From assembly GCF_000463015.1 (NCBI RefSeq), contig NC_022247.1:3472001-3536000 (forward strand): 64,000 nt of DNA, written 5' to 3'. Positions 1 through 16,723 of this stretch are shown here, in pieces. Position numbers and translations under genes: made by a program. Source of the DNA: Variovorax paradoxus B4. Lineage in GTDB: Bacteria > Pseudomonadota > Gammaproteobacteria > Burkholderiales > Burkholderiaceae_C. Under the pieces are notes generated by a model that was given only the letters and a program-made list of their open reading frames with translations, ran no database searches and was not told the DNA's origin. Numbering within the stretch: the stretch's first letter is position 1; every line of letters starts with the position of its first letter.

Positions 1-2087
1 CGCCGCAGGCGGTGTCGCGCGACGAGGCGCGGCGCGGCGCCGGCCCGCGCACCGAATGCGAACGCAAGGTGCTCGCCACCATGGAAAAGGTGCTGAGCCT
101 GCCGGGCCTGGACATGCGCGACGACTTCTTCACGATGGGCGGGCATTCGCTGCTGGCCTCGCGCCTGACCACGCTGCTGAGCCGCGAATTCCAGATCACG
201 CTGCCGCTGCGCTCGCTGTTCGAGGCGCCCACGGCCGAAAAGCTGGCCGCCGTGGTCGAAGGCCTGCAGAACGCCGGCGCCGGCGCGCAGGCACCGCTGC
301 CCTGCCGCATCGATCGCAAGACGGCACCGCTCACGCCCTCGCAGGAGCGCATCCGCTTCATGGAAGACCTGCATCCGGGCCGCTCCGTCTACAACGCTCC
401 CGCGGCCCAGCGCCTGACCGGCGTCTTCGACGCGGAGCGCTTCGAGGCCGCGTTCAAGGAAATCATCCGCCGCCAGCCCGCCATGCGCACCCGCATGGGC
501 ACCGATCCGCACACGGGCCAGCCGGCCCAGCTGATCGCGGAGTCGGTGGATTTCTCGCTGCCCTTCGTCGACCTGCGCGACCTGCCGGCCGACCAGCGCG
601 AAGCCGAACTGGCCGAACGCATGCAGGAGCTCGCCGACCGGCCGATCGACATCCACCGTGCGCCGATGCTGCATGCCGCAGTGTTCCAGCTCGACGTGCA
701 CGAGCATGTGTTCGTCTTCGTGCCGCACCACCTGATCTGGGACGGCTGGTCCTTCGACCTGCTCCAGCGCGAGCTCTCCGCCATCTACGACGCGGCGGAG
801 CGCGGGCGTGCGCATGCGCTGGCGCCCATCGCCACCACGCAGGGCGACTATGCCGAGTGGCTGGCGAACTGGATGAAGGAGCCGTCGTTCCAGGACCAGC
901 TCGACTTCTGGCTCAAGCGCTTCGCCGGCGCACCGATGCCGCGCCTGCCCAACACCGACATGCCGCGCCGCGCGGGCAAGAGCGGCCAGGGCGGCGCCCA
1001 CTGGATCCGCGTCGATCTCGCCACCACCCAGCAGCTGCGCAAGGTCGCGCGCGACATGGACGTGACGCTCAGCATGCTGACCTTCGGCGTGTACGCGTTC
1101 GCCATGAGCCGCATCGTCGGCTCCGAGGCCATCGTCATCGCGAACCCCGTGCGCGGCCGGCAGCAGCCCGAGACCGAAGACGTGATGGGCTTCTTCACCA
1201 ACGTGCTGCCGGTGTCGCTGCAGGTCGGCCTGGAACAGCCGCTCGCGGAGTTCATGCGCTACGTGAAGCGCGAGCTGCTGTCGCTGATGAACTACCAGCA
1301 GGTGCCGTTCGAGCGCCTGATGGCGGAGCCCTCGCTCGGCGCACGCATCAGGGCGGTCGGGCCCTACCAGTCGATGTTCTCGTTCCAGGACGCGCGCGAC
1401 CGTGCGCGCCGGCTCGGCAGCCTGCAGACGCGGCAGCTACACCTGATGCAGCGCGGCGCCACCGACGACATCGGCGTGTGGCTGATGGACAAGCCGCACG
1501 GGCTGGAAGGCGCGCTGATCTACAACGCGGACATCTACCTGCGCGAGACCGGGGCGCAGCTGCGCGACCGCTATCTCGAACTGCTGCAGAGGGTGGCCGA
1601 TCATCCCGAGGCGTCGCTGGCCGACCTTGCCAGCGAGGAAGGCTCCGCGAGCGCCGTCTATCTGCGCAAGCTCGCGGCCGTCGATCCGCTCAGGGCTGCG
1701 GCGCCGGTGGATGCGCCGGCCGGTGCGGCCAAGGCGCAAGACACCATCCTGAACCCCGAGCATGCGCGGCTCGCGCAGATCTGGGCCTCCGTGATCGGGA
1801 TCGATGTCAACGACATCCGCTCGAGCGACAACTTCTTCGATCTCGGCGGAGATTCGCTGCTCGTGCTGCGCGCGATCCAGCAGGCCGAGAAGACGCTGGG
1901 CTACCACGTGAATTCGCGCCGCTACCTGTTCGAGAACCTCGGGCAGATCGCCTCGTCCGCGCACCGGGCCGCGGAGGATGCCGAGCTCGCGGATCTCGGC
2001 AAGCTGCCGCTCGGCAACCTCAAGGGCCCGGCGCGCGGCGACGGCCTGCTGAGTCGCGCCTTCGGCAGCTGGCTGCGCAAGGAGTGA
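1..2087 (+). CDS. Nonribosomal peptide synthetase, C-terminal part (PCP-C-PCP), cut by the left window edge
   Basis: The frame is open from the first bases, so the true start and any adenylation domain lie outside. Counting from the GTG at 12, the visible order is: a carrier domain with DDFFTMGGHSLL (Ser46 is the phosphopantetheine site); a condensation domain of about residues 100-540 with the catalytic HHxxxDG motif as HHLIWDG at 239-245; an Ala/Pro-rich linker; and a second carrier domain with DNFFDLGGDSLL (Ser615). There is no adenylation domain between the condensation domain and the last carrier, and no thioesterase or reductase at the end, so loading and release of the last module must happen in trans. 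The next gene is a phosphopantetheinyl transferase 6 bases downstream, and exopolysaccharide genes follow in the same run. The product cannot be read from the window. Confidence 0.9.
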   Translation, partial: PQAVSRDEARRGAGPRTECERKVLATMEKVLSLPGLDMRDDFFTMGGHSLLASRLTTLLSREFQITLPLRSLFEAPTAEKLAAVVEGLQNAGAGAQAPLPCRIDRKTAPLTPSQERIRFMEDLHPGRSVYNAPAAQRLTGVFDAERFEAAFKEIIRRQPAMRTRMGTDPHTGQPAQLIAESVDFSLPFVDLRDLPADQREAELAERMQELADRPIDIHRAPMLHAAVFQLDVHEHVFVFVPHHLIWDGWSFDLLQRELSAIYDAAERGRAHALAPIATTQGDYAEWLANWMKEPSFQDQLDFWLKRFAGAPMPRLPNTDMPRRAGKSGQGGAHWIRVDLATTQQLRKVARDMDVTLSMLTFGVYAFAMSRIVGSEAIVIANPVRGRQQPETEDVMGFFTNVLPVSLQVGLEQPLAEFMRYVKRELLSLMNYQQVPFERLMAEPSLGARIRAVGPYQSMFSFQDARDRARRLGSLQTRQLHLMQRGATDDIGVWLMDKPHGLEGALIYNADIYLRETGAQLRDRYLELLQRVADHPEASLADLASEEGSASAVYLRKLAAVDPLRAAAPVDAPAGAAKAQDTILNPEHARLAQIWASVIGIDVNDIRSSDNFFDLGGDSLLVLRAIQQAEKTLGYHVNSRRYLFENLGQIASSAHRAAEDAELADLGKLPLGNLKGPARGDGLLSRAFGSWLRKE

Positions 2088-2093
2088 TCCATC

Positions 2094-2855
2094 ATGGGCC
2101 CCGCAGCTTTCTCCCTGAGCTCCGTCGAGGCGCCGGTCTGCCGGTATCTCGAACTGGACGTCGGCCCCGGCCCCGAGGCGCAGCGGCTCCTCAGCGACGA
2201 GGAGCATGAGCGCGCCGCACAGTTCCGGTTCGAGGCCGACCGGCAGCGCTTCGTGGCGGCGCATGTCGCGCTGCGGTACGCGCTGGCTGCGCACACCGGC
2301 GAGAGCCCCGAGGCGCTGCGCTTCACCCGCAGCGCATTCGGCAAGCCTTCGCTGTCGGGCTGGCCGCGGGTGCGGTTCTCGCTGAGTCACAGCCAGGCGC
2401 TGGGACTGCTCGCCATCGGCGAACGCGGTCCGCTGGGGGCCGACGTCGAGCAGCTGCGCCCGGTGCCCGATGCGCTCGCGCTTGCCGCGCAGCATTTCAC
2501 CGACAGCGAGAACGAAGCGCTCGCGGCCTTGCCCGCCGGCGAGCGCGAGCATGCCTTTCTGACCTGCTGGACGCGCAAGGAAGCCTGCCTCAAGGCCATC
2601 GGCCTCGGGCTGATCGTGCCGACGGAGCGCTTCGAGGTGGGGCTGGAGCCCGACTGCCGGAGCGTGGAAGTGCCGGTGGCCGGCCGGATCCTGTGGCTCG
2701 TGCTGCAGCCCGCGCCGCTGCGCGTGGACAGCGTGGGAGCGATCGCCGAATGGCGCCAGACGCACGTGCGCGCCAGCGTGCCGAGCTTCGCGGCGCAGAC
2801 CTGCGCCCGCTCCCGCTCGGCGGAAAGGCGCGCAGCGCCGAGGGTGCCGCAATGA
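2094..2855 (+). CDS. 4'-phosphopantetheinyl transferase, Sfp type
   Basis: This 253-residue enzyme should move the phosphopantetheine arm of CoA onto the carrier-domain serines of the upstream synthetase. The family signatures are present: GADVE at about 115-119 (magnesium ligands Asp117 and Glu119) and WTRKEACLKAIG from residue 159 (Glu163 and the catalytic Lys region). Length fits the Sfp/EntD group. ATG 2094 follows AAGGAG at about 9 bases. The stop overlaps the next start as ATGA, so translation is probably coupled. The last 15 or so residues (Arg/Ala-rich) look like unconserved tail. Confidence 0.92.
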   Translation: MGPAAFSLSSVEAPVCRYLELDVGPGPEAQRLLSDEEHERAAQFRFEADRQRFVAAHVALRYALAAHTGESPEALRFTRSAFGKPSLSGWPRVRFSLSHSQALGLLAIGERGPLGADVEQLRPVPDALALAAQHFTDSENEALAALPAGEREHAFLTCWTRKEACLKAIGLGLIVPTERFEVGLEPDCRSVEVPVAGRILWLVLQPAPLRVDSVGAIAEWRQTHVRASVPSFAAQTCARSRSAERRAAPRVPQ

Positions 2856-3670
2856 CCGCGCTCCCGTTCATGTTCGGACCGGCGTCGCGCCAGATCTTCG
2901 GCGTGTTCCATGCGGCTGGCGATGGCCGGCCCGGAAGTACCGCGGTGCTCGTGTGCCCGCCCTTCGGCCAGGAGGGCCTGCGGACCCACCGCTTCTTCAA
3001 GGTGCTGGCCGAGCGCCTCGCGCGCTCGGGCATTGCCACCCTGCGCTTCGACTTCCACGGCGCGGGCGACTCGCCCGGCGATGAAAGCGAAGGGGAGCTC
3101 GACGGCTGGCGCCGCGACCTGTGCTCGGCCCACGAAGAGCTGCGCCGCAGGGTTCCGGGAAGCCGCATCGTCTGGGTCGGCGCGCGGCTCGGCGCGACCC
3201 TGGCCGTGCTGGCTGCGCGCAACGGACGCTGCGACCCGTCGCGGCTCGTGCTGTGGGAGCCGGTGATCGACGGCCGGCGCTATGCGCGCCTGCTGCGCGA
3301 GCAGCATGTCGCGGCCATCGACACGACCTTCTGCATTCCGGACCTGGTCTGGCGCCGCAACCTTGCGCAGGATCCCGACGCGCTGCCCGAAGAAGCGCTG
3401 GGCACCATGCTGTCGCCCGCGCTGCGTACCCAGCTTGGCGCACTGGCGCCCGAATCGCTGCCGCTCACGGCCCTGCACGACACGCTGGTGCTGACTGCAC
3501 CCGACGACGCGGACACCGCGCAATGGGCGGCCGAACAGCAGTCGCGCCACATGCCGGTGCGTCTCGCCTATTTCCAGCACCGCCTCGACTGGACCTCCGA
3601 CCCCTATCCCAACAGCGCCATGGTTCCGGCCGACGCGCTCAACCGCTTGCAGGGTGCCCTCCATGAATGA
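2852..3670 (+). CDS. Alpha/beta hydrolase-like protein with Arg in place of the nucleophile (resembles exosortase-A-associated hydrolase 2)
   Basis: This 272-residue protein has an alpha/beta hydrolase fold: VLVCPPFGQEG oxyanion-loop region, then LRFDFHGAGDSPGD. The nucleophile elbow, normally GxSxG, reads G110-A-R112-L-G114, so the catalytic Ser is replaced by Arg. A similar Ser-less elbow is, from memory, typical of hydrolase 2 of exosortase A/EPS loci; a TIGR03101 profile search would decide. It may be a non-catalytic scaffold or act by another mechanism. The start is ATG 2852 because it overlaps the preceding stop (ATGA). The next gene starts 8 bases before its stop. Its place between NRPS/PPTase and Wza suggests handling of a carrier-bound acyl or peptidyl group, which is an inference. 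Confidence 0.75.
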   Translation: MTALPFMFGPASRQIFGVFHAAGDGRPGSTAVLVCPPFGQEGLRTHRFFKVLAERLARSGIATLRFDFHGAGDSPGDESEGELDGWRRDLCSAHEELRRRVPGSRIVWVGARLGATLAVLAARNGRCDPSRLVLWEPVIDGRRYARLLREQHVAAIDTTFCIPDLVWRRNLAQDPDALPEEALGTMLSPALRTQLGALAPESLPLTALHDTLVLTAPDDADTAQWAAEQQSRHMPVRLAYFQHRLDWTSDPYPNSAMVPADALNRLQGALHE

Positions 3671-4601
3671 CATGACGCAATGCCCCGTCCGGTTCGGACC
3701 GGGAAACGCACTGATGGGCATGGTCACCATTCCCACGTACCGGACGCCGGCCGACGTCGCCTGCCTGATGCTCAACATGGGCGCCAACCACCGGGTCGGG
3801 CCGCGCCGCATCAACGTGAAGCTGGCGCACGTCCTGGCCGCACGCGGCGTTAGCAGCCTGCGCTTCGACCTCGGCGGCCTGGGGGACAGCGACGCGTCCG
3901 ACGCGTCGTCCGACCTGCAGACCCGCGCGGTGCGCGACCTGCGCGCCGGCATGGACCTTCTCGAAAGCATGCTGGGCATCCGCAGGTTCGCGATCGTGGG
4001 CATGTGCTCGGGCGTGGAGCACGCCATGACCGCGGCCGCGACGGACACGCGCGTGGTGGCGCTCTCGCTGTTCGACGGCTTCGCCTTTCCGGACCGGCGC
4101 GCGCGCTGGGAACGCATGCTGCGGCGCGCCCTGGCGGCGCCCGCGCACCCGTCGTTCGCGGGCAAGGCCAAGCGCTGGCTCCAGCGCCACCTGCTCCCCA
4201 GCCATTCGACGAAGCCGCTGCCCGGTTTCTTCGCGGAACGCAAGCCGCCCGAGGTCAACGCGGTCTGGTTCGGCGCCACCATGAGGCGCCTGGTCGAACG
4301 CAAGGTGGCGGTGCAGCTGCTCTATTCGGGCTCGCTGCATGTCTGCGACCACGACCGCGACCAGCTCGGCCCGTTCCGCAGCGAACCCTTCGCGCTGGCC
4401 GTGCAGTACGAATTCATGCGCGATGCCGACCACACGCTTTGCACGATGCGGGGACAGCAGCTGTTCCTGCGCTCCGTCGGCGGCTGGGTGGCTGCCTGCG
4501 CCGTCGGCGCCGGCCCGGAGCGCCGCAGCACCAGCCCCAGCCCGAACCCGCTCGCCCCCGTCGTGGAGCGCCCCAAGCACGGCGCCTACGTCCCGCAGTG
4601 A
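3663..4601 (+). CDS. Alpha/beta hydrolase with Cys nucleophile elbow (resembles exosortase-A-associated hydrolase 1)
   Basis: This is a 312-residue alpha/beta hydrolase. The elbow reads G113-M-C115-S-G117, so a Cys sits where Ser is usual, and DADHT near the C-terminus supplies an acid/His pair. Core strand motifs include LRFDLGGLGDSD. Cys-type elbows occur in the dienelactone hydrolase group and, from memory, in hydrolase 1 of exosortase A loci (TIGR03100). It forms an overlapping pair with the preceding hydrolase. ATG 3663 is preferred over GTG 3654 because it sits in the usual short overlap. No signal peptide is seen, so it acts in the cytoplasm. A thioester-cleaving or transferring role on the synthetase is a reasonable inference, not shown. 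Confidence 0.75.
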   Translation: MNDMTQCPVRFGPGNALMGMVTIPTYRTPADVACLMLNMGANHRVGPRRINVKLAHVLAARGVSSLRFDLGGLGDSDASDASSDLQTRAVRDLRAGMDLLESMLGIRRFAIVGMCSGVEHAMTAAATDTRVVALSLFDGFAFPDRRARWERMLRRALAAPAHPSFAGKAKRWLQRHLLPSHSTKPLPGFFAERKPPEVNAVWFGATMRRLVERKVAVQLLYSGSLHVCDHDRDQLGPFRSEPFALAVQYEFMRDADHTLCTMRGQQLFLRSVGGWVAACAVGAGPERRSTSPSPNPLAPVVERPKHGAYVPQ

Positions 4602-4633
4602 ACCGATTCCCCCCAAGGAAGAAAGGAAACCCC

Positions 4634-5812
4634 ATGGCACACCTCGATCCGGCCAGTTCCTTGCGCACCGCCCGCGCCGTCCCCGCCCGCGCCCGAACCC
4701 GCATCCGATCGGCGGTGCTGCTGCTGCCGCTGTGCCTGGCCGGCTGCGGGGTTCCGGGTTTCGGTCCACCCGACAGCGGGAACTGGGGCGCCTACCGCTC
4801 GGGCGGCAGCGACGCGCGGGGCGAACCGAAGATCGTCTCCATCACGCCCGAACTGATCCGCACGATGGCGGCGCGCAACCCCGCCGCGCTGCCGCCCGAG
4901 GTGCGGCAGCTGTTCGGCAAGGCGCCGGCCTACACGATCGCCCCGGGCGACGTGATCGGCATCGTGGTCTATCGCCATCCCGAGCTGATGCCCAATGCGG
5001 GCGCGGTCATCTCGCAGCAGTCGGACCCCACCGGGGTGAGCGTCGCACCCGGCTTCATTGTCGATGGCGATGGCGAGATCAGCTTTCCCTACATCGGCCG
5101 CACCAAGATCGAAGGCATGACGGAAAGGTCCGCCGCCGAGATGATCTCGCGCAAGATCGCGCCCTTCGTCAAGGATCCGCTCGTGAGCGTCAGGATCCAG
5201 TCGTTCCGCAGCCGGCGCGTCTATGTGGAAGGCGAGGTCCGCACGCCGGGCCTGCAGATCTTCACCGACGTGCCGATGACGCTCGCCGAGGCCATCAACC
5301 GCGCCGGCAGCATCACACCGGCCGGCGACCGTTCGCGCGTGACCCTGACGCGCGCGGAACGCACGATGGTGATCGACCTGCCGCTGCTTCGGCGCCTGGG
5401 CCTCGACCCGACGCGCATCCCGCTGCAGAACGGCGACATCGTGAACGTGGGCACCCGGGACGACAGCCGCATCTACGTGATGGGCGAGATCCTGCGCCCC
5501 TCCGCCCTGCCGATGCGCGACGGCCGGCTGAGCCTGAACGAGGCGCTGGGCGACGCGGGCGGCCCGGCGCTGCAGACCGCGTCGACCGACCAGATCTACG
5601 TGGTGCGCAATTCGAGCGGCGACGTTCCCGAGGTGTACCACCTGGACGCGAAGAACCCGGTGGCGCTGGCGCTTGCCGACCGCTTCGAGCTGCAGCCGCG
5701 CGACGTGGTCTACATCGACCCCGTGCCGCTGGCGCGCTGGAACCGGGTGATCAGCCTGATCCTCCCCGCCGCGCAGGTCGTGAACCTCGGCGGCACCATG
5801 AGCCGCCGCTGA
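4634..5812 (+). CDS. wza: Outer-membrane polysaccharide export lipoprotein, Wza family
   Basis: This 392-residue protein has an Arg-rich N-terminus, a hydrophobic stretch and a lipobox ending LAGC (Cys38), so it is a lipoprotein. The poly_export domain follows (YTIAPGDVIGIVVYRHPEL, FIVDGDGEISFPYIGRTKIEGMT), then two SLBB repeats (RVYVEGEVRTPGLQIF, IYVMGEILRPSALPM), and a C-terminal amphipathic helix as in the Wza octamer that spans the outer membrane. Length is close to E. coli Wza (about 380). A strong Shine-Dalgarno, AAGGAAGAAAGGA, lies just before ATG 4634. It works with the Wzc-like kinase next in the operon. Confidence 0.93.
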   Translation: MAHLDPASSLRTARAVPARARTRIRSAVLLLPLCLAGCGVPGFGPPDSGNWGAYRSGGSDARGEPKIVSITPELIRTMAARNPAALPPEVRQLFGKAPAYTIAPGDVIGIVVYRHPELMPNAGAVISQQSDPTGVSVAPGFIVDGDGEISFPYIGRTKIEGMTERSAAEMISRKIAPFVKDPLVSVRIQSFRSRRVYVEGEVRTPGLQIFTDVPMTLAEAINRAGSITPAGDRSRVTLTRAERTMVIDLPLLRRLGLDPTRIPLQNGDIVNVGTRDDSRIYVMGEILRPSALPMRDGRLSLNEALGDAGGPALQTASTDQIYVVRNSSGDVPEVYHLDAKNPVALALADRFELQPRDVVYIDPVPLARWNRVISLILPAAQVVNLGGTMSRR

Positions 5813-5854
5813 CGCTCCGCCATCCCGTCCAGGCAACACACAAAGGTGATCCTC

Positions 5855-8149
5855 ATGAATGCGCACTGGCAACCTGCACTTCCCGCTCCCTCGGCCCCGG
5901 AGGTCGCGGCTTCCGACACCCCTCCTTCCAGGCTCAGGGAGCATGTCGACCTGCTGCTGGACAGCCGATGGAAGATCGCGGGCATCACCGCCGTCGCCCT
6001 GCTGCTGGGCGCGGGCTACGCCATGTTCGGGCCGCGCGTGTACGAGGCCAACGTGCTGATCCAGGTCGAGGACCCGGACCGCTCGGGCGGCACGCTGGTC
6101 GGCGACTCCGCGAGCAACGCGCTCAACGCCAAGACACCGACCGCGGGCGAGGCCGAGATCCTCAAGTCGCGCCTGGTGCTCGACCAGGCGATCGAGAACA
6201 CCAAGCTCTACATCGAGGCGCAGCCGCTGTACGTGCCGGTGGTCGGCGCCTGGCTGGCGCGCCGCGCCAAGACGCTTTCCGAACCGGGCTTCGCGGGCCT
6301 GTCGGGCTACGTGAGCGGCAACGAGCAGATCGTGGTTGCGCAAATGGACGTGCCGACGGATCTCGAAGGCAAGCGCTTCCTGCTGACCGCGGGCGCCAAC
6401 GGCAGCTACACGCTGACGCACCCCAAGCTGGACAAGCCGATGGCCGGCTCCGTCGGCGTGCCGCTCGATGCGCAGACCCCGCTCGGCCCGATCCATCTGC
6501 TGGTGGGCTCGATCGCGGGCCGGCCCGGCGCGGCCTTCGAGCTGGTGCGCCAGTCGAAGCAGCTCGTGCTGCTCGAGCTGCAGCGCGAGCTGCGCGTGAT
6601 CGAGAAGGGCAAGCAATCGTCGGTGATGGAAGTGAGCTGGCGCGACGGCAACCGGATGCAGCTGGCCAACCTGCTCAATGAAGTGGCGCAGCTCTACGTG
6701 CGCGTGAACATCGACCAGAAGACGGCCCAGGCACAGCGCGCCCTCAACTTCCTGGGCTCCGAGCTGCCCAAGCTGAAGCAGCAGCTGGAGCAGTCCGAGC
6801 AAACCTACAACCAGTACCGCAACCAGAACGGAACCATCAGCTTGGACGACGAGGCGCGCAACGCGCTGTCGCAGAACCTGGAACTGCAGACGAAGCTGTT
6901 CGACGCCACGCAAAAGCGCATCGAGCTTACCGAGCGCTTCACGGCCAGGGACCCGAGCGTGATGACCATCGACGCACAGATCGCGTCGCTCAGGAAGGCC
7001 CTCGGGGGCGTGGAGCAGCGCATTCGCCGCATGCCGATGCTGCAGCAGGACTCGCTGCGCATGCAGCGGGACATCAAGGTCAATACCGACCTGTACGTGT
7101 CGCTGCTGAACAGCTCGCTGCAGATGCGGCTCGCGAAGGAGGGGCGCATCGGCAACGTGCGCGTGCTCGACCAGGCGCTGCTTGCGGAAAAGCCGATCCG
7201 GCCCAAGGCCTCGATCGTCATGGGGATCGCGCTGATCGCGGGCCTTTCCTTCGGGGCAGGTTCGGCGTTCCTGCGCAGGTCGTGGCGCAAGACCATCGCC
7301 AGCCCGGCCGAGATCGAGACCCACACCGGCCTCGACGTCTACAGCACCGTGACGCTCAGCGCGCACCAGTACCTGCTCGATCGCGCCATTCGCAACGGCA
7401 AGCCCGGCGTGCACCTGCTGGCGGCGCAGCATCCGGACGACCCGGCGCTCGAGGGATTGCGGCGGCTGCGCACCGCGCTGAAGTTCGCCATGCCCAAGGC
7501 ATCGGACAACCGGCTCATGATTTCGAGCGCCACGCCGGGCGCGGGCAAGACCTTCGTGTCGGCCAACCTCGCGGCCGTGCTCGCCTCGACCGGTCGGCGC
7601 GTGCTGCTGATCGACGCCGATCTGCGGCGCAGCAGCCTGGCAGCCGTGTTCGGGCTGAAGCGCCGCGGCGGCCTGTCGGAACTGATCCAGGGCTCCATCG
7701 AATTCCAGAACGCCGTCCACACGGGCGTCATGGCGCACCTGGACGTGATGACCACGGGCGCGCTGCCCACGGACCCGAGCGCGCTCCTGACGAGCGACGC
7801 CTTTGCCAGGGTGCTCGAGAAGGCATCGGCACGCTATGACGTGGTGATCGTGGACACGCCGCCGATGCTGCTGGCCTCGGAGACCGCCGAGATGGCGGCC
7901 TGCATGGGCACGCTGCTGATGGTCGCGCGCGCCGGGGACAACGAGCTGGGCGACCTGTCGGAAAGCGCACACCAGCTGCGGCATGCCGGCGCGCAGTTCC
8001 AGGGCGTCGTCCTGAATGCGATGGACACGCGCCAGCGCTACTACGGCAAGCTGGCCTACCGCTACGGCGGCTACCAGCCGCGGGTGCACGAATACCCGAG
8101 GGCGGTTGCCGAGCTTCCCCAACCTGCCCATGCGAGCGCCGCATCATGA
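5855..8149 (+). CDS. wzc: Polysaccharide co-polymerase / bacterial tyrosine autokinase, Wzc family
   Basis: This 764-residue inner-membrane protein has an N-terminal Wzz domain with a first membrane segment (about 35-60), a long periplasmic coiled-coil region, a second membrane segment (about 455-475) and a cytoplasmic BY-kinase. ATP motifs: Walker A ATPGAGKT near 557-566, Walker A' VLLIDADLRR near 583 and Walker B VVIVDTPP near 663. The tail carries six tyrosines within about 25 residues (QRYYGKLAYRYGGYQ and VHEY), the expected autophosphorylation cluster. ATG 5855 is preferred over GTG 5846 because AAAGG lies 8 bases before it. It sets chain length and export with Wza. No partner tyrosine phosphatase is in the window. 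Confidence 0.93.
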   Translation: MNAHWQPALPAPSAPEVAASDTPPSRLREHVDLLLDSRWKIAGITAVALLLGAGYAMFGPRVYEANVLIQVEDPDRSGGTLVGDSASNALNAKTPTAGEAEILKSRLVLDQAIENTKLYIEAQPLYVPVVGAWLARRAKTLSEPGFAGLSGYVSGNEQIVVAQMDVPTDLEGKRFLLTAGANGSYTLTHPKLDKPMAGSVGVPLDAQTPLGPIHLLVGSIAGRPGAAFELVRQSKQLVLLELQRELRVIEKGKQSSVMEVSWRDGNRMQLANLLNEVAQLYVRVNIDQKTAQAQRALNFLGSELPKLKQQLEQSEQTYNQYRNQNGTISLDDEARNALSQNLELQTKLFDATQKRIELTERFTARDPSVMTIDAQIASLRKALGGVEQRIRRMPMLQQDSLRMQRDIKVNTDLYVSLLNSSLQMRLAKEGRIGNVRVLDQALLAEKPIRPKASIVMGIALIAGLSFGAGSAFLRRSWRKTIASPAEIETHTGLDVYSTVTLSAHQYLLDRAIRNGKPGVHLLAAQHPDDPALEGLRRLRTALKFAMPKASDNRLMISSATPGAGKTFVSANLAAVLASTGRRVLLIDADLRRSSLAAVFGLKRRGGLSELIQGSIEFQNAVHTGVMAHLDVMTTGALPTDPSALLTSDAFARVLEKASARYDVVIVDTPPMLLASETAEMAACMGTLLMVARAGDNELGDLSESAHQLRHAGAQFQGVVLNAMDTRQRYYGKLAYRYGGYQPRVHEYPRAVAELPQPAHASAAS

Positions 8150-8808: not shown

Positions 8809-8876
8809 GGGCCGTCGGCCGGCATCCGCATTTGCTTTTCGTCCTATCAACCCTCAACCCTTAACCGAAAGAACAT

Positions 8877-9854: not shown

Positions 9855-9896
9855 GCCCGCACCGCCCCCCACGCAAGAACAAGCACAAGGCCTTCC

Positions 9897-11219
9897 ATGA
9901 GAGCGCTTTCCTTCTGGTCAGGCATCGCCATTGCGTTCCTGTGCGGCTCGATCGAGCCGGCCTGGGGCTATGCGGCGGTGTGCGCGCTGTCGCTGGTACA
10001 GCTGTCGATGCTCGGCGCTCCGGGGGCCAGCGTCTTCCTGCTGATCCACTACGCCACGATCCTGACCTACTTCTCGCTGGCGCCGGCGATGCAGATCGCC
10101 GCCGACGTTTCGTTCTGGGACACGGGCGTGATCGGTCCGGTCGCGCACATGCAGGCGCTGACACTGCTGCTGCTGTACATGGCGGGTGTGGAGGCCGCCC
10201 GGTTCGGCATGCGCGATACGCCTGCGCTGGCGCCGGCCGATGCGGGCCACCAGATGCAGTCGGCCGGCGTGGCCCACCCCGCGCTGCTGCTCCTGAGCGG
10301 TGCGATCTCGGCGTTTGCCTCGCTGTTCATCCGCCCCGACCTGAACTTCATCGCGCGCGGCATTCCGGGAGCCGACGAAAGTCTTCCGGTCGACTACATC
10401 GTCTATTCGACGCTGCCCAAGCTCATCGTGCTGATCTGCTTCGTGGCACTGACGATCCATGCCGTGCGCCGCCGCACGGTCTGGTCATGGTGCGCCGCAG
10501 GCCTTGCGCTGGCGATGGCCGCCTTCGCCGCGAACCCGGTCAACACGGCGCGGCAGGTCTTGCTGATCGGGCTGCTGCCGCTCTTCATCCACGCACTGGG
10601 CCGAGGGTGGCGCTGGACGCTGGCCTTGCTGATCTTCGGTGCCATCGCGGGCCTCGGCCCGGTGCTCAACCTGGTGTCGCGCGGCACGTTCTGGGGCGAA
10701 TCGCTCACCACCTTTCCCTACAGCCAGGACTTCGACGCGATGTACGTCGTGGCCGGAATCATCGAGCGCGCATCCGAGCCCGAGCTCGGATGGGGGCGCT
10801 ACCTGCTGTCGGCTTTCTCGTTCATCCTGCCGCGGGACCTGAAGCTGTTTCCGGACTTCGATCCGCTGGGGTGGCCCGCCATCCTGGGCAACTTCTCGCA
10901 AGCCAACCTGTCGCTTCCGCCTTTCACGACCGCGTACTTCGACTTCGGACTGGCCGGTCCCGTGATGTTCGGCCTCGCGATCTCGGCCGGCTTCCGGGTG
11001 CTGGACAGGATGGTGGATCCGCGCGCCGCGCTGTCCGGCAGCTACCTGTGCGCGCTGGTGCTGCTGGCCGCCTACGTGCCGTTCCTGCGCGGTCCGATCC
11101 TCGGCTGGGGACCGTTCGCGGCATCGGGGCTGATTGCGGCGCTGCTCGCCGGGCTGTTGAGTTCGCGCTTCCGCCCGGTACGCCGCCGCGCGGCACCGTA
11201 TGCCTCCGGCGCGGTGTGA
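9897..11219 (+). CDS. Wzy-like polysaccharide polymerase / O-antigen ligase-type membrane protein
   Basis: This 440-residue polytopic membrane protein has about 10-12 hydrophobic segments and a larger loop near 255-330 containing short charged stretches, the layout of Wzy polymerases. It lies between GDP-fucose synthase and glycosyltransferases, where a polymerase is otherwise missing from the cluster. Wzy proteins are poorly conserved in sequence, so the call rests on topology and context. It would join repeat units on the periplasmic side. Confidence 0.7.
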   Translation: MRALSFWSGIAIAFLCGSIEPAWGYAAVCALSLVQLSMLGAPGASVFLLIHYATILTYFSLAPAMQIAADVSFWDTGVIGPVAHMQALTLLLLYMAGVEAARFGMRDTPALAPADAGHQMQSAGVAHPALLLLSGAISAFASLFIRPDLNFIARGIPGADESLPVDYIVYSTLPKLIVLICFVALTIHAVRRRTVWSWCAAGLALAMAAFAANPVNTARQVLLIGLLPLFIHALGRGWRWTLALLIFGAIAGLGPVLNLVSRGTFWGESLTTFPYSQDFDAMYVVAGIIERASEPELGWGRYLLSAFSFILPRDLKLFPDFDPLGWPAILGNFSQANLSLPPFTTAYFDFGLAGPVMFGLAISAGFRVLDRMVDPRAALSGSYLCALVLLAAYVPFLRGPILGWGPFAASGLIAALLAGLLSSRFRPVRRRAAPYASGAV

Positions 11220-11227
11220 GGTTCACC

Positions 11228-12325
11228 ATGTACAAGTACCTGTTCTACGACACGATCCGCCTCAACCGCGGCGCGGGCGGCGTGCTGAACGTGTCCGACC
11301 TCCTGCTGCGCAGGATGCGCCTGTGCAAGGGCGACCACATCCAGCCGGTGAGCGAACTGCATCCGCGCCTCTTCGCCGCCGCGCGGCGCCTGCGCCTCAG
11401 CCGGTTCCTGGTCGAGATACTGCTCTACAACTACCACCGGCTGCGGGCACTGGTATCGGGCGAGCAGGTGTTCTCGCTGTTCCCGAACTACTTCCTCCCG
11501 TTCACGCTTTTCGGGCGCCACCGGGATTCGATCGTGATCGTCCACGATCTGCAGTACCGGTACTACCCGGCGTATTTCAGCCGCACCAAGCGCCTGTGGC
11601 TCGACTGGAGCCTCAGGCGCGTCGCGCACAGCGCGGCCGACGTGGTCTTCATCAGCAGGAGCAGCCAGCAGGATTTCGAGCGGCACTTCGGGCGCTGCGA
11701 GCATGCGACAGTCATCTTCAATCCGGTGGAGGCCACGCGCGCAGCAGGCCCGGCCGAACCGGCCGCACCGTCCCGCGAGCCGCCCGTCGGCAAGCGCTAC
11801 CTGATCGCGTCCTACCACTACTACCCGCACAAGAATTTCGGCGGCACGCTGAAGCTGTTCGAGCGCATGAAGCGCGAGGGCCTGGTCGACTGGCTCGACA
11901 TCACGGGCAACGGCGCGGCCGATGTCCAGAGAATGGTCGCCGGCATGGCGCCCGACCTCGGCAGCTGTGTGCGGCACCGCGGGCTGGTCTCGCGCCAGGA
12001 ATTGACGCGGCTTTATTGCGGGGCGACGGCCTTCATCTCGCTGTCCGCCTTCGAAGGCTTCAACCTCTCGGCCGCCGAAGCCGCCACGCTGGGCGTGCCG
12101 CTGCTGCTCTCGGACATCCCGGTGCACCGGGAGCTGTTCGGCGGCTACGCCTTCTTCATCGGCAGCGAGCCGTGCGACCTGGGCCAGCTGTCGCGGTACC
12201 TGGACGAACACCGGGACACGCAACCGGCCTGGCTGCATGCCGAAGCCTGCGCGCCCGGGGCAGTGGCCAGGCGCTATCTCATGCTCAAGCGCGAGGCCGT
12301 CTGGCTTGCCGGGGCCATGCAATGA
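11228..12325 (+). CDS. Glycosyltransferase, GT4-like (GT-B fold)
   Basis: This 365-residue protein has the C-terminal GT-B signature AFEGFNLSAAEA (the E-x7-E nucleotide-sugar site) near 270-290 and YLIASYHYYPHKNFGGTLKLF at the start of the second Rossmann domain. HDLQYRYYP near 105 is typical of mannosyl/rhamnosyl GT4 enzymes. It has no membrane segment and is probably a cytoplasmic enzyme adding one sugar of the repeat unit. ATG 11228 is 8 bases after the preceding stop. Its stop overlaps the next start as ATGA. Confidence 0.87.
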   Translation: MYKYLFYDTIRLNRGAGGVLNVSDLLLRRMRLCKGDHIQPVSELHPRLFAAARRLRLSRFLVEILLYNYHRLRALVSGEQVFSLFPNYFLPFTLFGRHRDSIVIVHDLQYRYYPAYFSRTKRLWLDWSLRRVAHSAADVVFISRSSQQDFERHFGRCEHATVIFNPVEATRAAGPAEPAAPSREPPVGKRYLIASYHYYPHKNFGGTLKLFERMKREGLVDWLDITGNGAADVQRMVAGMAPDLGSCVRHRGLVSRQELTRLYCGATAFISLSAFEGFNLSAAEAATLGVPLLLSDIPVHRELFGGYAFFIGSEPCDLGQLSRYLDEHRDTQPAWLHAEACAPGAVARRYLMLKREAVWLAGAMQ

Positions 12326-13251: not shown

Positions 13252-13255
13252 CTGC

Positions 13256-14194
13256 ATGACCATGAACAACGACCTTCCCTTCATCGTGGTGGAAGACCGC
13301 CAGAACAAGTCCCTGCTGCTGTGCCGCGAATCGGCGGCGCGTGCGCAGGAACCGCTGATCGTGCTGTCGGCCACCGACGCCGGGCCCGGCTACGAGCGCC
13401 TGTGCCGCACCTATGTGCACCTGTCGAGCAATCCGCCGGAGTTCGAGAAGATCTGCTTCCGGCGCTACTTCCTGCTGTCGGAATATCTGCGTGCCCATCC
13501 CGAGCACCGCGAGTTCGTGCTGATCGACAGCGACGTGCTGCTGTTCCGGGGCGTCGGCGCGCACATCCGGCGCGTGGCCGGAAAGGCGGATTTCTCCGGC
13601 TCGTACAGGCGCCCCGACGATGGCTGGGACCCCTGCCAGATCTCGCCGCACGTCAGCTACTGGACCGCAGCGGGCCTGCAGCAGTTCATCGCGTTCCTGC
13701 TCAACACCTACGCAACGCCCTCCGGCCGCAGGAAGCTGCGCGCCATCGCGGCCCGGTTTGCCGCCAGGGGCCTGCGCGGCGGGGTATCGGACATGACCCT
13801 GCTGCACCTCTGGGCCCATGCGAGCGGCAATGCGGCGCCCATCAACCGGGTGTTCGGCGGGCGCGTGATCGACCACAACATCAACGGCGGGCACAACCTG
13901 CTCGCGAACGAATTCCAGGGCCGGGGCGGCGCCAAGCGCCTCGTGTTCGTCGACGGCCAGCCCTGCCTGGTCACGCCCGCGGGCGACCTGGTGAACGTGC
14001 TGGCCCTGCACTTCCAGGGCAGCGCCAAGATTGCGATGTCGCACGTGCTGCACGGCCGGGTGCGCACGGTCGCCCTGCTCACGGCCGCGCTGCGGCTGGC
14101 GCGCCGGGCCAAGAACTGGGCCTTCGGCGTGCGCCGGCTGGCGCAGCGCCCCGCGGGCGGCGCGCGCTTCGCCGGTGCGGCCGAGCCGAAATGA
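13256..14194 (+). CDS. Putative glycosyltransferase with DxD motif (GT-A-like)
   Basis: This 312-residue cytoplasmic protein has EFVLIDSDVLLF near 88-99, where DSD fits the metal/nucleotide-sugar-binding DxD of GT-A enzymes; other family motifs are not obvious. A later HNINGGHNLL segment and a basic tail are seen. It sits 4 bases after the GH29-like gene and just before the flippase, in the glycosyltransferase block. ATG 13256 (MTMNND) is the start that fits the spacing; ATG 13262 is also possible. Family assignment is weak. Confidence 0.65.
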   Translation: MTMNNDLPFIVVEDRQNKSLLLCRESAARAQEPLIVLSATDAGPGYERLCRTYVHLSSNPPEFEKICFRRYFLLSEYLRAHPEHREFVLIDSDVLLFRGVGAHIRRVAGKADFSGSYRRPDDGWDPCQISPHVSYWTAAGLQQFIAFLLNTYATPSGRRKLRAIAARFAARGLRGGVSDMTLLHLWAHASGNAAPINRVFGGRVIDHNINGGHNLLANEFQGRGGAKRLVFVDGQPCLVTPAGDLVNVLALHFQGSAKIAMSHVLHGRVRTVALLTAALRLARRAKNWAFGVRRLAQRPAGGARFAGAAEPK

Positions 14195-14225
14195 CACCGC
14201 CTCCCGCACGCAACCAGTCACGGCC

Positions 14226-15491
14226 ATGAACATCCTGCACCGCACCGTCGAACTCACCGGCATGCACGCGGTGCGGCTTCACGGCGTGGGGGCGCTGGCT
14301 TCGCGGCTCTATGTGTACCTCGCGGGTTTCGCGGCGCTGTTCCTGATGGCCGCGCACGTCTCGCCTTCGGACTTCGGCGAATACTCGATCTACCAGTCGG
14401 TGATGGAAGTGGCGCTGGTGGTGGCCATGCTGGGCAGTCCGCTGCTCTTCGCGCGCCATGCCGCCACCGTGCCGCCGGGCGTGCGCCGCGGCGACGTGGT
14501 CCGCACGCTGGCCGTCGGGCTTCCGCTGGCCGCGCTTCTGAGCGCCGCCGTCCTGCGCATCCAGCACCTGCCGGTGGCGGGCGCGCCTTTCGCGCTGCTG
14601 ATGGCGGCGCTCGCGGTGTTCTCGTTCATGAGCCTGCGCCTGTCGTACAGCCGGGGTCTGGGCCGTGCCGGCCTGCTCAACCTGGAGGGAGGCATCCGCT
14701 CGACCATCCTGGTCATCGGCGTGGCGGCTTTCGTCGCGTGGGGCGCCGAGCTGCGCGCGACGCAACTGCTGCTCATCAACCTGCTGGCCTTCCTGCTGGT
14801 GGGCGCGGCCTGCATGCAGACCCGCTGGGTCGTGGGCCCGCCGCCCGGACGCGCCGCCCTCGAGCTGGCGTCGCAGGGCAGCGCCACCGTCTATTCGCTG
14901 CTGATGTTCCTGCTTCGCAAGTCGGACCTGCTGGTGGTGGCCTTCTTCATGCCGCTCGGGTATGTGGGCGCCTTCAAGATCGCCTTCCTGCTGGCGGAGG
15001 CTCCGTCGCAGTTCGTGCAGGCCTTTCTCTACACCAAGACGCGTCCCATGCTGGGCACCGATGCCGCGAGCTCAGACGGCTCGGAGCTGCGGCTGGCGAA
15101 GCACTCGTTCCTGCTGGGCTGCGCGCTCTTCGCCGGGCTCGCCGTGGTGATCACGGCCGCCGCGCCGCTGCTGAAGGTCGGGCGCGAGTCGCTCGAGATC
15201 TTCCTGTGCATGACGCCCTACTTCCTGCTGCGCACCTACACGGTCCACCACGAGATGCTGCTCGCGCTCAAGGTGCCGATGGGCTCGCTGGGATGGTGGG
15301 CGCTCGCCGAGGTGCTGCTGCGGCTCCTGTCGTACGGCGCCGTGGTTTCAATCTTTCCCGGCAAGCCGCACTACGTGTTCTTCATTGCCGCCGTTTCCGA
15401 CCTGCTCCTCTACGAGGTGCGGATGCGTGCGCTGTTCGGCTTCTTTCCGCTCGCGCGGCTGGTTCGCGGTTCCTTCCCGAGGCCTTCATGA
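14226..15491 (+). CDS. Wzx-like lipid-linked oligosaccharide flippase
   Basis: This 421-residue polytopic protein has about 12 hydrophobic helices and the MOP-superfamily start GALASRLYVYLAGFAALFLM followed by SPSDFGEYSIYQSVM (the typical L.P.EFG.Y segment). It would flip undecaprenyl-linked repeat units to the periplasmic face. It completes the Wzx/Wzy/Wzc/Wza set. Its stop overlaps the next start as ATGA. Confidence 0.85.
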   Translation: MNILHRTVELTGMHAVRLHGVGALASRLYVYLAGFAALFLMAAHVSPSDFGEYSIYQSVMEVALVVAMLGSPLLFARHAATVPPGVRRGDVVRTLAVGLPLAALLSAAVLRIQHLPVAGAPFALLMAALAVFSFMSLRLSYSRGLGRAGLLNLEGGIRSTILVIGVAAFVAWGAELRATQLLLINLLAFLLVGAACMQTRWVVGPPPGRAALELASQGSATVYSLLMFLLRKSDLLVVAFFMPLGYVGAFKIAFLLAEAPSQFVQAFLYTKTRPMLGTDAASSDGSELRLAKHSFLLGCALFAGLAVVITAAAPLLKVGRESLEIFLCMTPYFLLRTYTVHHEMLLALKVPMGSLGWWALAEVLLRLLSYGAVVSIFPGKPHYVFFIAAVSDLLLYEVRMRALFGFFPLARLVRGSFPRPS

Positions 15492-16723
15492 AAATCTTGC
15501 TCTATTCGATGAACTTCACACCCGAGCTCGTCGGCATCGGCAAGTACTCGGGCGAGATGGCCCAGTGGCTGCATGCCAAGGGCCACGAGGTCCGGGTGAT
15601 TGCCTCGCCGCCGTTCTTTCCGCACTGGGCGCCGTTCGAAGGGCACTCGGCCTGGGCGTACCGCAAGACGGACTGGAACGGCATCACGGTCTGGCGCGCG
15701 CCCACCTGGGTGCCCGCGCGGCCGCGGGCGCTGGCGCGCATGGCGCATCTGTTCTCCTTCATGCTGTCGAGCATGCCGCTGCTCTTCGGGCAGATCCGCT
15801 GGAAGCCGGATCTGGTCTTCGTCGTGGAGCCGCCCCTTTTCTGCGCGCCGGCTGTGCTCTTCTTCTCGCGGATGCTCGGCATCAAGTCGTGGCTGCACAT
15901 CCAGGACTACGAGGTGGATGCCGCCTTCGACCTGGGCCTGGTGCGCGGCGCGCGGGTGCGGCGCTTCGCGCTCTCCGCGGAGCGCTGGCTCCTGAGCCGC
16001 TTCAGCCGGGTGTCGACCATCTCCGCCGCGATGCTCGACAAGGCCAGGAACAAGGGCATCGACGAAACCCGGCTGGTGCTTCTTCCCAATTGGGTGGACG
16101 TGCGCTCGATCTTCCCGCACCCGGGCGCCGCATCGGGCGCGAACGGCTACCGGGCCATGCTCGGCATTCCGGACGATGCGGTCGTGGTGCTCTATGCGGG
16201 CAGCCTGGGCAGCAAGCAGGGCATCGAACTGCTGGCCGATGCGGCGGGCCGGCTGGCGGCCGCCAGGCACATCCACTTCGTGCTCTGCGGCAACGGGCCG
16301 AGCCGCGAACCGCTGAAAGCCGCATGCGCCGGCCTGGACCACGTGCACTTTCTCGACCTGCAGCCGGCCGAGCGGCTCAACGAGCTGCTGGGAATGGCCG
16401 ACATCCACGTGCTGCCGCAGCGCGCTGACGCCGCGGACCTGGTGATGCCGTCGAAGCTGGGCGGCATGCTCGCGAGCGGCAAGGCCGTGATCGTCACGGC
16501 CCATGCGGGCACCGAGCTGAGCAACGTGGTGTCGGGCCGCGGCCTGGTGGTTGCGCCCGGCGACGCCGATGCGCTGGCCGAGGCCATCGCGCAGCTCGCC
16601 ACGTCGCGCCCGCAGCGCGAAGCCATGGGCGCGGCCGGCCGTTCGTTCGCCGAAACGCAGCTGGACCAGAACGCCATCCTGCAGCGCCTGGAGCGCGAGT
16701 TGCTGCGCTGCCTCGCCGACTGA
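15488..16723 (+). CDS. wcaI: Glycosyltransferase, WcaI family (colanic-acid type)
   Basis: This 411-residue GT4 enzyme follows E. coli WcaI closely in motif order: MKILLYSMNFTPELVGIGKY, EMAQWLHAKGHEVRVIASPP, WKPDLVFVVEPPLFCAP, LHIQDYEVDAAFDLGL, STISAAMLDKARNKGI, LPNWVDV, VLYAGSLGSKQGIE and DLVMPSKLGGMLASGK. WcaI is a fucosyltransferase of colanic acid synthesis, so with GDP-fucose synthase upstream it is the best candidate for adding fucose. It is the last gene of the tightly spaced + strand run (60-base gap follows). Confidence 0.9.
   Translation: MKILLYSMNFTPELVGIGKYSGEMAQWLHAKGHEVRVIASPPFFPHWAPFEGHSAWAYRKTDWNGITVWRAPTWVPARPRALARMAHLFSFMLSSMPLLFGQIRWKPDLVFVVEPPLFCAPAVLFFSRMLGIKSWLHIQDYEVDAAFDLGLVRGARVRRFALSAERWLLSRFSRVSTISAAMLDKARNKGIDETRLVLLPNWVDVRSIFPHPGAASGANGYRAMLGIPDDAVVVLYAGSLGSKQGIELLADAAGRLAAARHIHFVLCGNGPSREPLKAACAGLDHVHFLDLQPAERLNELLGMADIHVLPQRADAADLVMPSKLGGMLASGKAVIVTAHAGTELSNVVSGRGLVVAPGDADALAEAIAQLATSRPQREAMGAAGRSFAETQLDQNAILQRLERELLRCLAD

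What the first reader, a model, noticed from the sequence alone, without database searches (positions are those of the whole stretch)
1..16723. Peptide synthetase wired into a Wzx/Wzy exopolysaccharide operon
An NRPS end, a PPTase and two alpha/beta hydrolases sit directly before wza-wzc and the rest of a fucose EPS cluster, all on one strand with gaps of a few bases or overlaps. This implies one transcript and a product in which a peptide or acyl group is made with, or attached to, the polysaccharide. Seen directly: order, spacing, domain motifs. Inferred: a chemical link between peptide and polymer.
Basis: partly seen in the sequence, partly recalled or inferred. Interest (0 to 1): 0.8.

Follow-up and report, generated by a model that had tools for sequence, protein, structure and literature searches.

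The report
Peptide assembly line fused to exopolysaccharide operon
In many Variovorax soil bacteria a small peptide-making assembly line sits directly in front of the genes that build and export a sugar polymer, and cousins pair the same kind of line with a different polymer locus, which suggests that the peptide belongs with the slime the cells make, although no chemistry has been shown.

Summary
The window cuts off a two-gene PKS-NRPS that starts 10.3 kb upstream (A-PCP-KS-AT-ACP-aminotransferase, then C-A-PCP-C-PCP, no thioesterase). It runs with small overlaps or gaps of at most 68 bp through PPTase, two alpha/beta-hydrolases, wza, wzc and the fucose-type EPS genes to manC. The adjacency is not chance: in 101 Variovorax genomes, 44 of 46 loci with a close hyd2 have wza about 1 kb downstream, the putative Wzy occurs in exactly those 44 genomes, and in five distant members the block is intact although upstream flanks differ. 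In three other genera the same kind of aminotransferase NRPS plus hydrolase pair lies inside or beside XrtA-like EPS clusters. The hydrolase pair resembles the exosortase-A-associated hydrolases 2 and 1, including odd active sites (Arg and Cys in place of Ser). Against an obligate link: 49 of 95 Variovorax loci carry a divergent cassette with no listed wza beside it. Best reading: a short beta-amino peptide made with the EPS and perhaps transferred to it by the Cys hydrolase. Co-function is likely; covalent attachment is inferred. Nine searches of an open-access library found no report of the pairing.

The parts
1..2087 (+). 3' end of nrpsB (starts at window coordinate -2916; L007:11084-16087), C-A-PCP-C-PCP, 1667 aa; in the window: PCP, C, PCP
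   Evidence: Pfam; gene limits. The upstream gene nrpsA (L007:3696-11087, 2463 aa, A-PCP-KS-AT-ACP-class III aminotransferase) overlaps it by 4 bp.
2094..2855 (+). 4'-phosphopantetheinyl transferase, to activate the carrier domains
   Evidence: PF01648 56.9 bits, PF22624 33.5 bits
2852..3670 (+). hyd2, alpha/beta-hydrolase fold with Arg in the nucleophile elbow (G-A-R-L-G); related to exosortase A system-associated hydrolase 2
   Evidence: TIGR03101 91.2 bits against a cut-off of 202.75; Arg112 in 50 of 50 named loci; model mean pLDDT 86, Arg112 between strand 105-111 and helix 113-122
3663..4601 (+). hyd1, alpha/beta-hydrolase fold with Cys in the nucleophile elbow (G-M-C-S-G); related to exosortase A system-associated hydrolase 1; proposed offloading or transfer enzyme
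4634..5812 (+). wza, outer-membrane polysaccharide export protein
   Evidence: PF02563, SLBB, Wza_C
5858..8149 (+). wzc, chain-length regulator and tyrosine kinase
   Evidence: PF23607, PF13807, PF02706, PF13614
8146..8808 (+). initiating sugar-phosphate transferase (WbaP/WcaJ type)
   Evidence: PF02397 200 bits
8877..9854 (+). GDP-L-fucose synthase-like epimerase (fcl)
   Evidence: PF01370 218 bits; the fucose label is from family knowledge
9897..11219 (+). putative Wzy polymerase
   Evidence: no significant Pfam match; position and hydrophobic sequence; present in 44 of 101 Variovorax genomes, the linked ones only
11216..12325 (+). glycosyltransferase, GT4-like
   Evidence: PF00534 33.6 bits
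12322..13251 (+). exported protein, faint alpha-L-fucosidase likeness; start by eye
   Evidence: PF01120 E 0.14, below cut-off
13262..14194 (+). unassigned protein, possibly a glycosyltransferase (DSD motif read by eye)
   Evidence: no significant Pfam match; syntenic in relatives
14226..15491 (+). putative Wzx flippase; start by eye
   Evidence: PF01943 24.7 bits, under the cut-off of 28.2
15488..16723 (+). glycosyltransferase
   Evidence: PF13579 88 bits, PF00534 76 bits
16784..17572 (+). LuxR-type response regulator; same block in relatives
   Evidence: PF00072, PF00196; synteny
17606..19111 (+). manC, mannose-1-phosphate guanylyltransferase/isomerase; end of the conserved block
   Evidence: PF00483, PF01050; synteny

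Best explanation
nrpsA-nrpsB-PPTase-hyd2-hyd1 and the wza...manC EPS genes form one functional block, probably one long operon. Steps: (1) nrpsA loads a branched amino acid (valine by its code), extends it with a malonyl unit and converts the beta-keto group to an amine, giving a carrier-bound 3,4-diamino acid. (2) nrpsB adds a second residue and passes the chain to a terminal C-PCP that has no A domain and no thioesterase. (3) hyd1, a Cys-His alpha/beta-hydrolase, takes the chain off the terminal carrier and transfers or releases it; hyd2, with Arg where the nucleophile should be, is a non-catalytic partner. (4) The likely acceptor is the cytoplasmic lipid-linked sugar repeat or its precursor, so that the EPS leaves through Wzx/Wzy/Wza carrying a short cationic beta-amino peptide. 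Shown by sequence: gene order, domains, conserved residues, conserved and recurrent linkage. Inferred: one transcript, substrate identities, hyd1 as transferase, the acceptor.
For: Linkage: in 101 Variovorax genomes 44 of the 46 loci with hyd2 at 81% or more have wza 953-1146 bp downstream on the same strand; of the other two, G493 ends 738 bases after hyd2 and G494 is a MAG contig. The putative Wzy occurs in exactly those 44 genomes and in none of the other 57. The seven genomes without hyd2 at E 1e-40 also lack this Wzy. In G420, G442, G444, G453 and G456 the full domain order of nrpsA and nrpsB, hyd2, hyd1 and every EPS gene to manC are kept, while of 13 queries from the window's upstream flank one matched, at 32% in G453, and the 20-kb upstream flanks share 0-1.7 kb with each other. 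The hyd1-wza gap is 25-116 bp in 26 linked named loci, taking the most upstream in-frame ATG after the hyd1 stop. Recurrence: in G032 and G367 the same kind of line, PPTase, hyd2 and hyd1 lie inside an XrtA-type EPS cluster between chain-length/kinase genes and glycosyltransferases; in G005 the line is divergent from an XrtA-like cluster; in G129 and G290 hyd1 lies about 7 and 11 kb from the nearest matched gene of one; G240 has both on one 64-kb contig. On the AMT tree the XrtA-linked rows need at least two separate places. Enzymes: AMT closest to mycosubtilin synthase AMT, E 8.7e-122. The hyd2/hyd1 active-site oddities are shared with true XrtA hydrolases: Arg in 25 of 25, Cys in 23 of 23 readable of 25 loci. 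No exporter gene was recognised in the block other than the EPS machinery.
Against: 49 of 95 Variovorax hyd2 loci are not beside a listed wza; in the ones examined the next genes include miaB, two-component genes, an RND pump or thiolase, so a divergent form of the cassette persists without this EPS locus. No recognisable peptidyl-glycan transferase lies in the EPS part. The second A-domain code differs among EPS-linked species (DMPQWGGVY, DIAQWGVVW) and from unlinked ones (often the glycine-like DILQLGMVW), odd if one polymer decoration were conserved. The PPTase is not always there (no match in 8 of 50 named loci, and in 2 of the 5 genomes). hyd1 could simply hydrolyse. The wza-linked cases are essentially one clade, so they are one history and not 44 tests.
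Confidence: 0.42

Rival explanations
1. The assembly line makes a free, diffusible small peptide (signal, metallophore or antimicrobial) that is only co-expressed with the EPS, for example as a matrix component or biofilm cue. hyd1 is an ordinary type II or releasing thioesterase with a Cys nucleophile.
For: A divergent cassette occurs without a listed wza neighbour in 49 of 95 Variovorax loci; an AcrB-type RND gene lies near hyd1 in five named loci (one BLAST group; Pfam shown for L105 only); the hyd1 fold matches esterases and thioesterases, among them DcsB 7d78 and a myristoyl-ACP thioesterase 1tht.
Against: It does not by itself explain why the EPS-specific Wzy is not seen without the linked cassette (44 of 44 genomes), why the cassette meets a second EPS type in other genera, or why PPTase-hyd2-hyd1 stand beside EPS-type glycosyltransferases with no NRPS in the fetched 20 kb in L055, L056 and L058.
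Confidence: 0.36
2. Positional hitch-hiking: the cassette and EPS genes joined once in a Variovorax ancestor in a variable genome region and have stayed neighbours by inheritance, without shared function.
For: Essentially one clade holds the wza-linked cases (tree); an integrase and a stretch of lower third-position GC lie just upstream in the window genome.
Against: Upstream flanks differ between species while the block holds; downstream only 2.2-3.6 kb beyond manC was seen in the five distant genomes, with none of the three genes that follow manC in the window. wza in linked loci falls to 62% identity with the adjacency kept. Linkage recurs with XrtA-like clusters in three other genera. Of 11 genera tabulated, 4 (one of them the Xylophilus MAG's, not independent) have a Poly_export gene within 30 kb of hyd2; rough chance estimate 0.0004, or 0.006 by a stricter sum (34 genomes picked by me from the hyd2 hits). 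Seven genera have none.
Confidence: 0.14
3. The pair hyd2-hyd1 is the EPS-facing part and the NRPS is one of several interchangeable suppliers of a carrier-bound acyl or peptidyl group; in XrtA loci an AMP ligase and acyl carrier protein play that role. (This overlaps the best explanation; the confidences are not exclusive.)
For: Same hydrolase pair with the same Arg and Cys elbows in XrtA loci; AMP-ligase-like matches (29%) on the opposite strand beside the pair in L164, L165 and L182; in G308 the pair stands between the XrtA kinase-like gene and GT2 with no NRPS at that place, while in G032 and G367 the NRPS stands just before it.
Against: The function of the XrtA hydrolases is itself unknown; such matches were seen in 3 of 25 loci, which hold only about 1.5 kb on each side; the ACP and decarboxylase partners are recalled from NCBIfam names, not tested. 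G308 does have NRPS modules with a second hyd2 about 20-30 kb away on the same contig (L187).
Confidence: 0.3

Closest known systems
Exosortase A (XrtA)/PEP-CTERM EPS loci with hydrolase 2 and hydrolase 1 (TIGR03101, TIGR03100)
   Same: hyd2 and hyd1 as neighbours; Arg and Cys in the two nucleophile elbows
   Different: Window proteins score far under both cut-offs; of nine XrtA-type queries only the export protein (28%) and sugar transferase (33%) match within the window and 52 kb before and 20 kb after it; the activating enzyme is a full PKS-NRPS
Mycosubtilin/iturin-type hybrid PKS-NRPS with a beta-aminotransferase (MycA)
   Same: a ketosynthase module followed in cis by a class III aminotransferase; MycA's AMT is the nearest solved relative
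   Different: MycA begins with a fatty-acid ligase (recalled); here the first unit is an amino-acid A-PCP, so a 3,4-diamino acid rather than a beta-amino fatty acid is expected; no TE; EPS genes downstream
Group 1 / colanic-acid-like Wzx/Wzy EPS operons
   Same: wza, wzc, initiating transferase, fcl, manC, GTs, putative Wzx and Wzy
   Different: preceded by a PKS-NRPS, PPTase and hydrolase pair; no wzb recognised in the block; gmd not in the window's cluster
Peptide-bearing sheath polysaccharide of Sphaerotilus ('thiopeptidoglycan')
   Same: a polysaccharide called a glycoconjugate in a group that one paper places in the Comamonadaceae; I saw only passages and reference titles (PMC11087309, PMC11412304)
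   Different: its peptide biosynthesis is not described in what I saw, and no sequence link to this cassette was tested

Membership tests
XrtA-associated hydrolase pair (TIGR03101/TIGR03100) | score over the curated cut-off | tested here: not met
   91.2 against 202.75 and 52.9 against 168.45 bits
XrtA-associated hydrolase pair (TIGR03101/TIGR03100) | hyd2 and hyd1 adjacent, Arg in the first elbow and Cys in the second (features found here, not the curators') | tested here: met
   50 of 50 Arg and 50 of 50 Cys in named cassette loci; 25 of 25 Arg and 23 of 23 readable Cys in the 25 XrtA loci held of 29 matches
XrtA/PEP-CTERM EPS locus | XrtA export, chain-length, ATPase and deacetylase genes next to the cassette | tested here: not met
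   nine XrtA-type queries against the window and its flanks gave only Wza (28%) and the sugar transferase (33%); Wza scores 73.8 against 180 for TIGR03027. Export, chain-length and ATPase genes are present beside the pair in G032, G367, G308, G240
beta-aminotransferase hybrid PKS-NRPS (MycA type) | KS module followed in cis by a class III aminotransferase | tested here: met
   Pfam KS, AT, PP-binding, Aminotran_3 in one protein; MycA AMT best PDB match
beta-aminotransferase hybrid PKS-NRPS (MycA type) | N-terminal fatty-acid (acyl) ligase and lipid tail | tested here: not met
   first A domain has an amino-acid code, DAFWIGGTF (read as valine from memory); the N-terminal 236 aa show no Pfam family and at most a degenerate C half, detectable in homologues L048/L049, weak in the window protein
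Wzx/Wzy-dependent EPS operon | Wza, Wzc, initiating transferase | tested here: met
Wzx/Wzy-dependent EPS operon | Wzx and Wzy proven by family | tested here: inconclusive
   Wzx under cut-off, Wzy without a significant Pfam match
peptide-decorated polysaccharide | amino acids covalently bound to the polymer | not testable with these tools
   needs purified EPS

The most novel reading that the evidence does not exclude
A family-wide way of making peptide-bearing exopolysaccharides: a non-ribosomal line builds a short beta-amino peptide, and a Cys alpha/beta-hydrolase with an Arg pseudo-hydrolase partner transfers it from the last carrier domain to the polymer's lipid-linked repeat. The XrtA hydrolase pair, of unknown function, would do the same job with simpler carrier-bound groups.
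Probability: 0.28. Interest if true: 0.88.

Novelty: new variant of a known kind. Interest (0 to 1): 0.66.

Why it matters
It ties a peptide assembly line to polysaccharide export as a conserved unit in a common soil and root genus, and through the shared hydrolase pair gives a concrete handle on two exosortase-A-associated proteins whose role is unknown. If the peptide is bound to the polymer, non-ribosomal chemistry would be a route to cationic, peptide-bearing EPS, testable in one genus with simple gene deletions.

Tried and rejected
Considered and set aside: long minus-strand ORFs (for example 2387-4303 and 4586-8131) as rival genes. Such stretches are open in relatives too, so openness does not settle it, but family matches and third-position changes support the + strand genes. 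A lipopeptide reading is not supported by the first domain. Rfam gave nothing in the window at gathering scores. Paper searches listed no account of this pairing by title or opening abstract; I did not open most listed papers, and the library lacks most subscription journals. The 2006 PEP-CTERM paper (PMC1569441), searched for five words only, did not contain ligase, hydrolase or decarboxylase. PMC9850573 and PMC13386937 were searched for passages only. No fold search was run for hyd2, and no complex was modelled. Names for genera coded g33, g129, g6 and g50 were not obtained.

Rows dropped before tallies: duplicates L040-L044 from the tree and the uncounted row L107; L095 has a very long AMT branch there. 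The tree labels are clustered far beyond shuffles (5 changes against 20.9), which relatedness alone would give, so I do not use that as evidence. The Fisher value ignores relatedness and is not used. Two closer genomes, G402 and G422, do share flank genes with the window on both sides. In the downstream flank of G453 one window gene matched at 37%.
Full report
What is there. The window lies at G000:C2:3472001-3536000 of a two-contig 7.15-Mb genome; its nearest named relatives by hyd2 are Variovorax paradoxus NBRC 15149 and V. beijingensis (94-96% identical). The first gene is the end of a 1667-aa NRPS (C-A-PCP-C-PCP). A 2463-aa gene before it (A-PCP-KS-AT-ACP-class III aminotransferase) overlaps it by 4 bp. 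Then follow a PPTase, two alpha/beta-hydrolases, wza, wzc, a sugar transferase, fcl, a putative wzy, glycosyltransferases, a faintly fucosidase-like protein, an unassigned protein, a putative wzx, a response regulator and manC. All are on the + strand with junctions from small overlaps to 68 bp (with the starts of two genes moved by eye to 12322 and 14226). A simple scan finds no promoter and no more terminators than shuffled DNA.

Is the linkage more than chance. Of 101 Variovorax genomes, 94 carry hyd2 at E 1e-40 or better (95 loci). In 46 loci hyd2 is at least 81% identical to the window's; 44 of these have wza on the same strand 953-1146 bp downstream. The two exceptions are a contig that ends 738 bases after hyd2 (G493) and a MAG contig (G494, which appears to be the named locus L083, where later EPS genes follow hyd1 after 2 kb). 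None of the 49 loci with hyd2 at or below 65% has a listed wza beside it; the list was cut at low identity. The putative Wzy is found in 44 genomes, exactly the 44 with the adjacency. Among the 50 named loci, all have NRPS domain matches in the fetched flank; 28 have hyd2 at 74% or more and 26 of them show wza, the other two being L083 and L084 (contig end just after hyd1); none of the other 22 does, of which four (L088, L094, L100, L102) have under 5 kb downstream. The named loci overlap the genomes above and are not independent of them.

Block against background. In five distant linked genomes (G456, G420, G453, G442, G444) the domain order of nrpsA and nrpsB, hyd2 and hyd1 is complete (no PPTase match in G456 and G420), and every EPS gene from hyd1 to manC is found in order. 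Of 13 queries from the window's upstream flank only one matched, at 32% in G453. Their 20-kb upstream flanks share 0 to 1.7 kb with each other. Downstream, only 2.2-3.6 kb beyond manC was seen; the three genes that follow manC in the window are not there. Two closer genomes, G402 and G422, do share flank genes with the window. So the block keeps together where the surroundings do not. These genomes share ancestry, so this is one history, not 44 tests; the tree of the aminotransferase puts the wza-linked rows in essentially one clade, with the Xylophilus MAG's place unsure.

Second kind of EPS. In an unnamed genus of the same family (g33), G032 and G367 carry XrtA-type export, ATPase, chain-length and kinase-like genes, then the same kind of line (AMT 74% identical), PPTase, hyd2, hyd1, and then a family-2 glycosyltransferase, an O-ligase-like gene and more glycosyltransferases, with deacetylases in G032. 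G308 of the same genus has hyd2-hyd1 at that place without the NRPS, although NRPS modules and a second hyd2 lie some 20-30 kb away on its contig. G240 has the line, hyd2, a second NRPS and XrtA deacetylase, chain-length and export genes on one 64-kb contig. In G005 (g6) the line is divergent from an XrtA-like cluster. In G129 and G290 (g129, AMT 53% identical) hyd1 lies about 7 and 11 kb from the nearest matched gene of one. So three genera beyond Variovorax and the Xylophilus MAG are linked. In 34 genomes that I picked, covering 11 genera, a Poly_export gene lies within 30 kb of hyd2 in 4 genera; a rough chance estimate is 0.0004, or 0.006 by a stricter sum. The selection was mine, one of the four is the Xylophilus MAG's genus that shares the Variovorax block, and seven genera show no such neighbour; in g92 the nearest is about 97 kb away.

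Chemistry. The first A domain reads DAFWIGGTF, which I recall as a valine code; DALWLGGTF replaces it in the few other contexts read. The second reads DMPQWGGVY in the window and most linked named loci, DIAQWGVVW in other linked ones, often DILQLGMVW (recalled as glycine) in unlinked ones, and DVWHLSLVD (recalled as serine) in G032. The aminotransferase is closest in the PDB to that of mycosubtilin synthase. Together these predict a carrier-bound 3,4-diamino acid joined to one further residue. The last module lacks an A domain and no thioesterase domain was found. The N-terminal 236 residues are at most a broken C half, detectable in homologues and weak in the window protein.

How it most likely works. 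I favour a short cationic beta-amino peptide made on the line, taken off by hyd1 with help from hyd2, and placed on the polymer's precursor. The conserved block, the second EPS type, and a hydrolase pair that also stands beside EPS-type genes without an NRPS in the fetched 20 kb (L055, L056, L058) speak for it. The unlinked cassettes and the changing second residue speak against a fixed covalent decoration, and a free product co-expressed with the matrix is nearly as likely. Hitch-hiking alone could explain the Variovorax clade but not easily the recurrence.

Novelty. Nine searches of the open-access paper library listed no description of this pairing. The parts are known kinds; the combination and its conservation are what appears new.

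Noticed in passing
L007:83-1336 (-), about 13.9-12.7 kb before the window; lower third-position GC from about 22 to 11 kb before it: Phage-type integrase and a stretch of odd codon composition just upstream of the PKS-NRPS in the window genome; probably a mobile island. Most of its genes were not found at this place in G402 and G422.
   Followed up: partly
L086, L100, L101, L105, L106 near hyd1: An AcrB-type RND pump gene (Pfam shown for L105, the others by BLAST grouping) lies near several unlinked cassettes on the opposite strand; a possible exporter of a free product.
   Followed up: no
window 12322-13251: Exported protein with only a faint alpha-L-fucosidase likeness (E 0.14), conserved in the EPS block; perhaps a glycan-trimming enzyme of an unassigned family.
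   Followed up: no
L059:10906-16011: A second NRPS (A-PCP-C-A-PCP, 1701 aa) between a hyd2-like gene and an XrtA polysaccharide deacetylase in G240.
   Followed up: partly
L152:6251-7417, L145:13231-14286 and 15318-16343: Some relatives carry gmd, another epimerase and a histidine kinase inside the block; the window genome has its nearest gmd-like gene 2.6 Mb away.
   Followed up: partly
L095: The aminotransferase of the V. ginsengisoli S09.D cassette is only 47% identical and has a very long branch: replacement or decay.
   Followed up: no
L055, L056, L058 (genus g50): PPTase-hyd2-hyd1 followed by EPS-type glycosyltransferases and an O-ligase-like gene without any NRPS match in the fetched 20 kb.
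   Followed up: partly
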